A stretch of DNA of 58,057 bases from NCBI GenBank assembly GCA_030835305.1, contig JAURPJ010000104.1, positions 1 to 58,057 of the forward strand, read 5' to 3'. Source of the DNA: Verrucomicrobiota bacterium (GTDB lineage Bacteria > Verrucomicrobiota > Verrucomicrobiia > Verrucomicrobiales > Akkermansiaceae). This document shows positions 54,356 through 56,071 of the stretch, piece by piece (within the stretch, counting starts at the first letter, position 1; the number at the start of each line of letters is the position of its first letter). Both the position numbers and the translations under genes were made by a program. The notes under the pieces are model-generated. The model was not told the origin of the DNA. It was given only the letters and a program-made list of their open reading frames with translations, and searched no databases.

Positions 54356-54769
54356 CTACTGTTTTTCAGGCAACTTTCGAGCCGTTGCCTTACACACTAT
54401 CTCTAAGGTGTTTTCTCTAGCAGTCCAAAGAATCTTTAGCCACTCAACACCAAACAACTTTGGAAAATTCGAATTTCCAGCTTTTGCTTCTTTTTGCTTC
54501 GAACGAGATTCAAGATAAAAAATCACTTCTTCATCCTTCAAAGAATACAGCTTCTCTAAAATTTTCTTGATGCCAGCATCTCCCTTCCCGACAAGCTGGC
54601 CATCGAAATAGTACAGTGTTTCTTTTGGGCCAGCCTTAATAGAATCGCCAAATTTACTTTCTTCGTACACATAACTCCATTCAACATGGTGTATATTGCG
54701 TCTAACTTCTGGATCCGCATGACAGCAAAAAGTTGAAATAGATAAAAATATTAAAATATAAATTCTCAT
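54356..54769 (-). CDS. Exported hypothetical protein, candidate immunity protein
   Basis: A 137-residue AT-rich gene with a signal peptide (MRIYILIFLSISTFCCHA). The mature part has YFDGQLVGKGDAGIKKILEKLY and VEWLKILWTARENTL; no family recognised. It starts 6 bases after the RHS-Tgl-like gene stop on the same strand. That position, small size and unrelated sequence are typical of immunity genes of polymorphic toxins; with a signal peptide it would protect in the periplasm. This is inference from context only. Confidence 0.6.
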   Translation of the reverse strand: MRIYILIFLSISTFCCHADPEVRRNIHHVEWSYVYEESKFGDSIKAGPKETLYYFDGQLVGKGDAGIKKILEKLYSLKDEEVIFYLESRSKQKEAKAGNSNFPKLFGVEWLKILWTARENTLEIVCKATARKLPEKQ

Positions 54770-54775
54770 AATTTT

Positions 54776-56071
54776 CTAGTTTGAAGTAATCCCATATCGA
54801 TAATTATCACCAGTAGAAAGCCCGTCCTTTGGGACCTCATCGATGTCGCGCTCAATCTCAATAGCCATTGCATGGGGTCGGAAAAAATTGACATGTCGTA
54901 GCGGAACTCCTACCTGCTTTGCGATTCTTGCCTCACCCCATTTCCCAACATGCTTTTTCCACCCAGCCAAATTTTTAAATTTGTCATGATATTCTCCGGT
55001 AATGAGACCAAAGTATTCATTATCTCCAAGATAGAAAAGATTCTCCCCCTCATTCCCCCTTCCCCCTTTCTCTCCACCCCACACCACATGATCTAAGTTG
55101 AAAATATAAGCCCAGTCTCCGGGAATGTGGATATCTGTGGGAACGTCTACCCTTCTATACCATTTCCCAATATCGTATACGGCATTGAGAGCCTGCCTAC
55201 ATCCAAATTTACATTTGGAAAAATCATCATCTTCGACCATCTTTCCGTTGGTAAAGGTAGCTTGGGCAACAGATAGAGCGCGTTTAGCTAGGTCTCTCCG
55301 AAAGGAGACATGTTTTTGAAGCTGTCGCCAGCACGCTTCAGGGCTTTCTCCATTGAAACCAAAAACACTTTCGTGCTTTATCATCGCCTTAATAATTTCA
55401 TTATAGCTTTCAATAACCCCATCAGAATAATGATGCTCCCCATTTACTACCTTATATTTGTAAGAAATCCCCAAATCATCTAATTGTTTGTTTATCGGAC
55501 ATTTTGTTGCAATTATCATCCCGAGAAAATCTTGGGTATTCACCGCATTATTCCCCACCATCCCGTAGAGGTTGATTCCGCCACGCTCGTTGATGGGATC
55601 TCTGCTTGGCCACCTCCCTGTCACCGGATCGTAGTATCTGTAGCCGTATTCGTGATTTCTCTCCCTGACTGAGGGGCAACTTGGGGTGGTTGTAGTGACA
55701 TTTTGGGGACTTCCGCGGGAGCGCCGAGGAGCAAGGAGTAAGGTCATGAAGCTCAAAACCAAGGGAGTATCGGGGTTCTGAGGCGGTATTGGGCGGACAC
55801 TGCGTGGGTCATCATAGACATGGATCGAAGCACGGGAATAGGTAGGCTCAGAGTGCGCGGCATCGCGGTAGATCGAGATTGATTGCCAGATTTCCGGGGA
55901 TGAGATCTCTTCCGCCCCCGTGGCGAGGCTCCCCAAAAGGGCCGTTTGAGGGCATTCAGACTGAGTCTTACTCGCTGGAGAAAATAAAACGTGCGCGTAT
56001 GCGACACTCACCAGAACAAGAAGAAAAGCAGGGAGGATCTTCGGGATGTTCCAGGACGCTTTTTTGAACAT
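54776..56071 (-). CDS. RHS-tail protein with transglutaminase (Tgl)-like C-terminal domain
   Basis: A 431-residue AT-rich exported protein. Signal segment about 8-28, a short variable region, then the RHS end (about 139-187): YGYRYYDPVTGRWPSRDP and LYGMVGNNAVNTQDFLGM. The C-terminal 240 residues look like Bacillus Tgl protein-glutamine gamma-glutamyltransferase: a Cys in FGCRQALNAVYDIG (near 292), then GDWAYIFN, then EGENLFYLGDNEYFG with the Glu of the GEN motif. It lacks the usual long RHS repeat section, so it is an orphan tail. Likely a polymorphic toxin; the downstream gene may be immunity. Start taken as ATG at 56071. Confidence 0.75.
   Translation of the reverse strand: MFKKASWNIPKILPAFLLVLVSVAYAHVLFSPASKTQSECPQTALLGSLATGAEEISSPEIWQSISIYRDAAHSEPTYSRASIHVYDDPRSVRPIPPQNPDTPLVLSFMTLLLAPRRSRGSPQNVTTTTPSCPSVRERNHEYGYRYYDPVTGRWPSRDPINERGGINLYGMVGNNAVNTQDFLGMIIATKCPINKQLDDLGISYKYKVVNGEHHYSDGVIESYNEIIKAMIKHESVFGFNGESPEACWRQLQKHVSFRRDLAKRALSVAQATFTNGKMVEDDDFSKCKFGCRQALNAVYDIGKWYRRVDVPTDIHIPGDWAYIFNLDHVVWGGEKGGRGNEGENLFYLGDNEYFGLITGEYHDKFKNLAGWKKHVGKWGEARIAKQVGVPLRHVNFFRPHAMAIEIERDIDEVPKDGLSTGDNYRYGITSN

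What the first reader, a model, noticed from the sequence alone, without database searches (positions are those of the whole stretch)
54356..56071. RHS-tail polymorphic toxin candidate with a Bacillus Tgl-like transglutaminase domain and adjacent immunity gene
The domain after the RHS end carries a Cys-helix (FGCRQALNAVYD), GDWAYIFN, and EGENLFYLGDNEYFG, matching from memory the Cys and Glu dyad and GD-YFKN / GENVILLGEDKYF pattern of Bacillus subtilis Tgl. Its length (about 240) also fits. A transglutaminase as RHS toxin would crosslink proteins of a rival. AT-rich composition, an orphan RHS stub and a small exported gene 6 bases downstream fit a recently acquired toxin-immunity cassette.
Basis: partly seen in the sequence, partly recalled or inferred. 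Interest (0 to 1): 0.72.

Follow-up and report, generated by a model that had tools for sequence, protein, structure and literature searches.

The report
Tgl-like Rhs toxin and immunity cassette
A probable bacterial weapon gene carries, on the end of a short Rhs protein, a relative of an enzyme that bonds proteins together, and beside it sits the gene that probably protects the maker; this pairing recurs in distant bacteria and looks new.

Summary
The window (Akkermansiaceae) encodes an exported-looking 431-aa protein, 54776-56071 (-), ending in an Rhs core tail plus a 246-aa C-terminal domain; a 137-aa gene starts 6 bases downstream. Alone, the domain hits Pfam TGL only weakly (14.2 bits, cut-off 23.7). 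Three relatives were found, in two Akkermansiaceae and one Kiritimatiellota genome; one passes the TGL cut-off (27.5 bits). The four-domain profile matches two Tgl proteins (hhalign E 1.3e-7; best of 100 shuffles under half the score). All four toxins are followed within 25 bases by a relative of the small gene. That family also occurs without the toxin in two immunity-like arrays, and its seven members look exported, so the toxin probably acts in the envelope. One sister genome shows the site without the ~4-kb insert. Tgl's catalytic Cys and Glu187 are conserved in 4 of 4; Glu115 is absent in all, and the essential His200 is Leu in the window copy alone, which may be weakened or changed. Toxicity, cross-linking and protection are untested. 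I call it an orphan Rhs-CT/immunity module with a Tgl-like toxin domain: a new variant of a known kind.

The parts
54776..56071 (-). Orphan Rhs protein, 431 aa from the ATG: signal-peptide-like N-terminus, short linker, one Rhs core tail, Tgl-like C-terminal domain
   Evidence: ORF; TIGR03696 E 3.3e-14; hydrophobic N-terminus, best 12-residue Kyte-Doolittle mean 2.88
55517..55654 (-). Rhs core tail (end of Rhs_assc_core, profile positions 31-76 of 76)
54776..55516 (-). Tgl-like C-terminal toxin domain, 246 aa, A+T-rich
   Evidence: Pfam TGL E 0.027 alone, below cut-off; relative L008 above the TGL cut-off; hhalign E 1.3e-7 with the family; GC 42.0%
55199..55201 (-). Codon of the Cys aligned with Tgl Cys116
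   Evidence: alignment A8; Cys in 6 of 6 rows
55043..55045 (-). Codon of the Glu aligned with Tgl Glu187 (GEN motif)
   Evidence: alignment A8; Glu in 4 of 4 toxins and one of two Tgl rows
55004..55006 (-). Position aligned with Tgl His200: Leu here, His in the other three toxins and both Tgl rows
54356..54769 (-). Candidate immunity gene, 137 aa, exported-looking, no Pfam family
   Evidence: relatives next to 3 of 3 other toxins; pairwise E 1e-9 to the L008 gene and 4e-5 to the L003 gene; L033 gene E 1.1e-9 to the family profile
52243..56315 (.). Approximate span of the insert absent from the sister genome G676; holds transposase, immunity and toxin genes
52416..53561 (-). Y1/IS200-like transposase (REP-associated type by recall) inside the same insert
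   Evidence: PF01797 E 2.4e-11

Best explanation
It is an orphan Rhs-CT/immunity module. A short Rhs protein with its own signal peptide carries a C-terminal domain of the Bacillus Tgl superfamily (NlpC/P60-like cysteine acyltransferase). The toxin most likely acts in the envelope or periplasm of a neighbouring Gram-negative cell: its Cys attacks a glutamine side chain and the acyl group passes to an amine or to water, so that envelope proteins are cross-linked or deamidated. The exported 137-aa partner binds and blocks it in the maker's own periplasm. Shown: homology to Tgl, conserved Cys and Glu187, gene pairing, export-like N-termini of the partner family, insertion. Inferred: toxicity, substrate, chemistry, protection. 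The Leu at the Tgl His200 position may have weakened or changed this particular copy.
For: Pfam TGL is the one family listed in all four domain scans: window 14.2 bits, L003 15.3, L033 22.0, and L008 27.5, above the 23.7 cut-off. hhalign of the four against two Tgl proteins: probability 94.1, E 1.3e-7, 126 columns, Cys on Cys116, with GD, GEN and the H200 position aligned; best of 100 shuffles 24.9 against 56.4, reversed 14.4. The best PDB match of the four-domain profile is a Tgl (7c9j, E 0.0054). 4 of 4 domains follow an Rhs tail above the NCBIfam cut-off. 4 of 4 toxins have the immunity relative 6, 12, 25 and 8 bases downstream. L033 was found by searching with the immunity family, not the toxin; its domain matches the window's at E 3e-47, 39% identity. 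7 of 7 immunity relatives have a hydrophobic N-terminus, KD12 2.45 or more. Two members without the toxin sit in immunity-like arrays. Empty site in a sister genome.
Against: The window domain alone is below Pfam's cut-off, finds no Tgl in the PDB sequences, and in hhalign is barely above shuffles (25.5 against 21.9). In L003 the family LuxE scores above TGL (16.9 against 15.3 bits). NCBIfam's Tgl model PRK03187 is matched only at E 0.098 and 0.096, far below its cut-off (L008, L033). The structure model of the toxin failed. Glu115, without which Tgl has no activity (PMC6490927, passages), is absent in 4 of 4, and His200, likewise essential there, is Leu in the window. No toxicity data. Three of four toxins show no clear signal peptide (their true starts are uncertain). 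No full-length Rhs gene was found in the assembly, so the delivery route is unknown.
Confidence: 0.62

Rival explanations
1. Same module and same fold, but the toxin is a peptidoglycan or peptide amidase (NlpC/P60-like hydrolase) rather than a transamidase; the exported immunity protein guards the wall.
For: Tgl shares the NlpC/P60 core (PMC6490927, passages); NlpC/P60 toxins are listed among polymorphic toxins (PMC3482391, passages); the exported-looking immunity family fits an envelope target; Tgl's Glu115 is not kept, and some 25 residues between Cys and GD, around Tgl Trp149, are missing (the window row happens to show a Trp in that column, the other three Gly).
Against: Pfam scans up to E 10 (three domains) or E 1 (L033) listed TGL and no NlpC/P60 family, though HMMER's filters drop most weak matches; the GEN and FGH motifs follow Tgl.
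Confidence: 0.2
2. The window copy is a decaying module: the immunity gene is kept for protection, the toxin has lost activity at the His200 position and is a relic carried on a mobile insert.
For: Leu at the Tgl His200 position in the window only; no full-length Rhs gene found in the assembly and one other Rhs fragment with an internal stop; transposase in the same insert.
Against: Both reading frames are open, and the toxin domain aligns with its relatives without a break; Cys, Glu187 and Asn188 positions are kept; a signal peptide and start codon are present.
Confidence: 0.3
3. Not a weapon: a secreted Tgl-like enzyme that modifies the cell's own surface, with an accessory or inhibitor protein beside it.
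For: Tgl's known role is structural cross-linking (spore coat, PMC6490927, passages).
Against: Rhs tail before the domain in 4 of 4 loci, lower G+C in the C-terminal part than in the part before it in 4 of 4, patchy occurrence, partner genes without the toxin in immunity-like arrays.
Confidence: 0.07

Closest known systems
Bacillus subtilis Tgl and the Pfam TGL family (PF20085)
   Same: Cys116, Glu187, Tyr171 and Asn188 positions, the GD..Y..N and GEN..Y.G motifs, the helix before the Cys
   Different: Fused to an Rhs tail; about 25 residues shorter between Cys and GD; Glu115 absent; His200 is Leu in the window copy; not in a spore former (recalled for the family); window domain below the Pfam cut-off
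Orphan Rhs-CT/RhsI and CdiA-CT/CdiI modules (PMC3150448, passages)
   Same: Short Rhs remnant, variable C-terminal domain, adjacent small gene; transposable-element genes near by
   Different: Own start codon and signal peptide; no full-length Rhs gene found upstream or elsewhere in the assembly; toxin domain type not found in the papers searched
Tox-TGase of polymorphic toxins (PMC3482391, passages)
   Same: Papain-like superfamily, proposed transglutaminase or protease toxin
   Different: Defined there by Cys, His, Asp; the word Tgl has 0 occurrences in the held text; the table row seen lists no immunity family for Tox-TGase
EAT14, an eCIS toxin with a Transglut_prok (PF09017) domain (PMC11297309, passages)
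   Same: Transglutaminase-like toxin shown to kill E. coli; C, D and H mutants lose toxicity
   Different: Another Pfam family, not listed for the window domain; encoded beside an eCIS; no Rhs tail is described in the passages seen

Membership tests
Tgl / PF20085 transglutaminase | Catalytic Cys116 | tested here: met
   Cys in 4 of 4 toxins and 2 of 2 Tgl rows
Tgl / PF20085 transglutaminase | Glu187 (GEN) partner | tested here: met
   Glu in 4 of 4 toxins; one of the two Tgl rows (L017) has Val
Tgl / PF20085 transglutaminase | Glu115 before the Cys (E115A inactive, PMC6490927) | tested here: not met
   Gly, Ala, Ser, Gly in the four toxins
Tgl / PF20085 transglutaminase | His200 (H200A inactive, PMC6490927) | tested here: not met
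   Leu in the window; His in the other three
Tgl / PF20085 transglutaminase | Pfam gathering score 23.7 bits | tested here: not met
   Window 14.2, L003 15.3, L033 22.0; L008 27.5 does pass
Tgl / PF20085 transglutaminase | Homology to Tgl over the core | tested here: met
   hhalign E 1.3e-7 for the four-domain profile, with shuffle control
Tgl / PF20085 transglutaminase | NlpC/P60-like fold | tested here: inconclusive
   Model mean pLDDT 31.2
Tgl / PF20085 transglutaminase | Transamidation activity | not testable with these tools
   needs a bench assay
Orphan Rhs-CT/immunity module (polymorphic toxin) | Rhs core tail before a variable C-terminal domain | tested here: met
   TIGR03696 above its cut-off of 32.5 bits in 4 of 4: window 53.1, L003 63.1, L008 46.1, L033 51.1
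Orphan Rhs-CT/immunity module (polymorphic toxin) | Cognate small gene directly downstream | tested here: met
   4 of 4 toxin loci
Orphan Rhs-CT/immunity module (polymorphic toxin) | Lacks the delivery part of a full-length Rhs protein | tested here: met
   431 aa, one core tail; only one other Rhs core match in the assembly, a fragment
Orphan Rhs-CT/immunity module (polymorphic toxin) | Toxicity and specific neutralisation | not testable with these tools
   needs a bench assay
Tox-TGase (PMC3482391) | Cys-His-Asp triad | tested here: inconclusive
   No reference alignment at hand; the Tgl His position is Leu in the window
Transglut_prok PF09017 (EAT14) | Match to the Pfam model | tested here: not met
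   Not among the Pfam matches listed up to E 10

The most novel reading that the evidence does not exclude
The spore-coat type transglutaminase fold has been recruited as an interbacterial toxin that covalently cross-links envelope proteins in the periplasm, with its own family of exported immunity proteins that also spread alone through immunity arrays; the window copy has moved to a site without the Tgl histidine and may use altered chemistry, such as deamidation.
Probability: 0.3. Interest if true: 0.7.

Novelty: new variant of a known kind. Interest (0 to 1): 0.5.

Why it matters
Most described toxin domains of polymorphic toxin systems act on nucleic acids, with peptidases and protein-modifying enzymes beside them (PMC3482391, passages). 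A Tgl-type toxin with a dedicated exported immunity family would add covalent cross-linking of envelope proteins to that arsenal, give Verrucomicrobiota a defined weapon, and offer small self-contained transglutaminases with natural inhibitors.

Tried and rejected
Toxin fold: an AlphaFold2 job with three rows gave mean pLDDT 31.2, too poor to search. Immunity fold: four rows gave mean pLDDT 66.9 and pTM 0.61; Foldseek found no match at E 0.001 or better, and the VIA second look gave at best Z 6.0, with TolR (5by4, Z 5.7, rmsd 3.0 over 77) and ExbD (8vgc, Z 5.3, rmsd 2.8 over 70) tied with ribosomal and Argonaute chains. I read this as a common alpha/beta arrangement, no more.

Rows dropped before counts. 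Weak toxin hits: L004 (E 0.0099; inside a glycosyltransferase-like frame by eye), L007 (E 0.006; another large protein by eye), L014 and L015 (E 0.005 and 0.007; L014 is antisense to a large open frame; of L015 I saw one translated stretch). So the matches at E 0.01 were 3 of 288, 3 of 387 and 3 of 288 genomes, of which 2, 2 and 1 were kept, the window's own included each time. Weak immunity hits: L012 (E 0.004; inside a 653-aa phosphatase-like protein by eye) and L025-L028 (E 0.005-0.009, three stops reported in the matched frame).

Searches that found no relative of the toxin: first genome-contig scan, viral contigs, plasmids, phages. PF20085 over 387 genomes of the phylum: none at E 0.001. 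PADLOC up to E 1: none. PDB sequence search with the nine-row immunity profile: none up to E 5. Robbsia plasmid hit of the Tgl fragment (E 0.2) judged chance. Rfam on the insert at gathering scores and on the thiC leader up to E 1: none. Empty site: 14 of 16 genomes of the genus gave thiC; I fetched the stretch beside it in the 13 other than the window's, and only G676 has phoH there, so the empty site rests on one genome; the other 12 have another arrangement or end too soon.

Paper searches. None of the listed titles is a Tgl-type Rhs toxin; others (15 of 1,073 listed; 10 of 20 listed) were cut lists, and most subscription papers are not in that library.

Full report
What is there. On the minus strand the window holds two genes 6 bases apart. 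The first, 54776-56071, encodes 431 aa from an ATG (433 from a TTG six bases upstream): a signal-peptide-like N-terminus (best 12-residue Kyte-Doolittle mean 2.88), a short linker, one Rhs core tail (TIGR03696, E 3.3e-14), then a 246-aa C-terminal domain. The second, 54356-54769, encodes a 137-aa protein with a hydrophobic N-terminus and no Pfam family. G+C drops at the Rhs/C-terminal border from 53.8% to 42.0%, and is 37.2% in the small gene. Host: G712, of the window's own family, contains L008, a record titled Akkermansiaceae.

Is the domain Tgl-like? Alone, only weakly: Pfam TGL E 0.027, 14.2 bits against a cut-off of 23.7, and no Tgl in a PDB sequence search. So I looked for relatives. 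A phylum sample (3 of 288 genomes matched at E 0.01, one being the window's own and one dropped as chance) gave L003 (E 4e-9); a second genome-contig scan gave L008, an Akkermansiaceae MAG (E 1e-43 relative to the candidates), and L009, a Kiritimatiellota MAG that contains L003. Searching the family with the small gene's profile led to a fourth, L033, whose domain matches the window's at E 3e-47 and 39% identity. L008 passes the TGL cut-off (27.5 bits, E 2.3e-6); L033 scores 22.0, L003 15.3, there behind LuxE at 16.9. TGL is the only Pfam family listed for all four. NCBIfam's own Tgl model gives only E 0.098 and 0.096 for L008 and L033. The four-row profile against two Tgl proteins (L016, L017) gives hhalign probability 94.1 and E 1.3e-7 over 126 columns. 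In 100 column shuffles the best score was 24.9 against 56.4, and the reversed profile gave 14.4. With the window domain alone the score was 25.5 against a shuffle best of 21.9: the case rests on the family. In the PDB sequence search the top match of the four-row profile is a Tgl, 7c9j, E 0.0054.

Active site. In alignment A8 the Cys sits on Tgl Cys116 in 6 of 6 rows; the GEN Glu (Tgl Glu187) is kept in 4 of 4 toxins and in one of two Tgl rows; the Tyr171 and Asn188 positions are kept in 6 of 6. Glu115 is Gly, Ala, Ser and Gly in the toxins. His200 is His in three toxins and both Tgl rows, and Leu in the window (from about residue 150 the numbers of L016 run one higher than those of B. subtilis Tgl). 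In Tgl, C116A, E115A and H200A show no activity and E187A keeps about 60% (PMC6490927, passages). So a full Tgl mechanism cannot be claimed, and the window copy in particular may be weak, altered or dead. The toxin structure model failed.

The partner gene. In 4 of 4 toxin loci a relative of the small gene follows at 6, 12, 25 and 8 bases. Homology to the window gene: L008 E 1e-9 and L003 E 4e-5 in pairwise comparison; L033 E 1.1e-9 to a profile that did not contain it. The family search (10 of 244 genomes matched at E 0.01; 4 dropped as chance; 3 of the remaining 6 were already in the profile) plus L003 gives seven loci. Four lie behind the toxin, one (L032) starts 188 bases from a contig end and cannot be judged, and two (L013, L031) lie without any Rhs tail motif in the fetched stretch among same-strand genes that include DUF4262 in both, and CPCC and DMP19 in L013. 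I read those arrays as immunity arrays by analogy with the polyimmunity loci of PMC3482391 (passages). That paper does not name DUF4262, CPCC or DMP19 (0 occurrences each) and reports extended polyimmunity loci from other phyla only, so the reading is mine. The domain is doubled in L003 and L013. All seven have a hydrophobic N-terminus by a simple hydropathy measure. An immunity protein that is exported implies a target outside the cytoplasm; this is inference.

Insertion. In sister genome G676 phoH and thiC are 256 bases apart; in the window 4270 bases. DNA homology stops at about 52242 and resumes at about 56316. The insert holds a Y1 transposase (PF01797), the immunity gene and the toxin gene. 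A Y1 transposase also lies beside the immunity relative in L032. The assembly (96.9% complete) holds one other Rhs core match, a fragment with an internal stop; no full-length Rhs gene was found.

Verdict. The locus fits the orphan modules of PMC3150448 (passages), where orphan CdiA-CT/CdiI pairs were shown to be functional. The toxin domain is a distant homologue of Tgl, not a member by the features tested. Nearest functional precedent: EAT14, with a different transglutaminase family, kills E. coli and depends on Cys, Asp and His (PMC11297309, passages). I found no Tgl-type Rhs toxin in nine paper searches. Toxicity, substrate and protection remain to be tested.

Noticed in passing
L033:5100-6619: A second cassette seems to follow the Tgl-like module: an ORF (5100-6062) with a partial Rhs core (TIGR03696 E 0.011, below cut-off) and a small downstream gene (6074-6619) with no Pfam family: a possible tandem array.
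   Followed up: partly
L013:5823-12696 (-): Same-strand array of small genes with DUF4262, CPCC and DMP19 domains and several without Pfam match, holding a doubled relative of the immunity gene: a possible polyimmunity locus in the window's family.
   Followed up: partly
window 52416-53561 and L032:962-2191: Y1/IS200-like transposases beside the immunity family in two genomes; may mark how the cassettes move.
   Followed up: no
L008:3-1376: The N-terminal part of the L008 toxin frame weakly matches the C-terminal end of a XerC-type recombinase model (PRK01287, E 2e-4, 20.3 bits, cut-off 371): perhaps a trace of how the module was joined.
   Followed up: no
window 56316-56499: The leader before thiC looks like a TPP riboswitch by eye (recalled motif), yet Rfam finds nothing there even at E 1.
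   Followed up: partly
L017:985-1866: A Tgl on a 1.4-Mb Niallia taxi plasmid has Val at the position of catalytic Glu187 but keeps Glu115 and His200.
   Followed up: no
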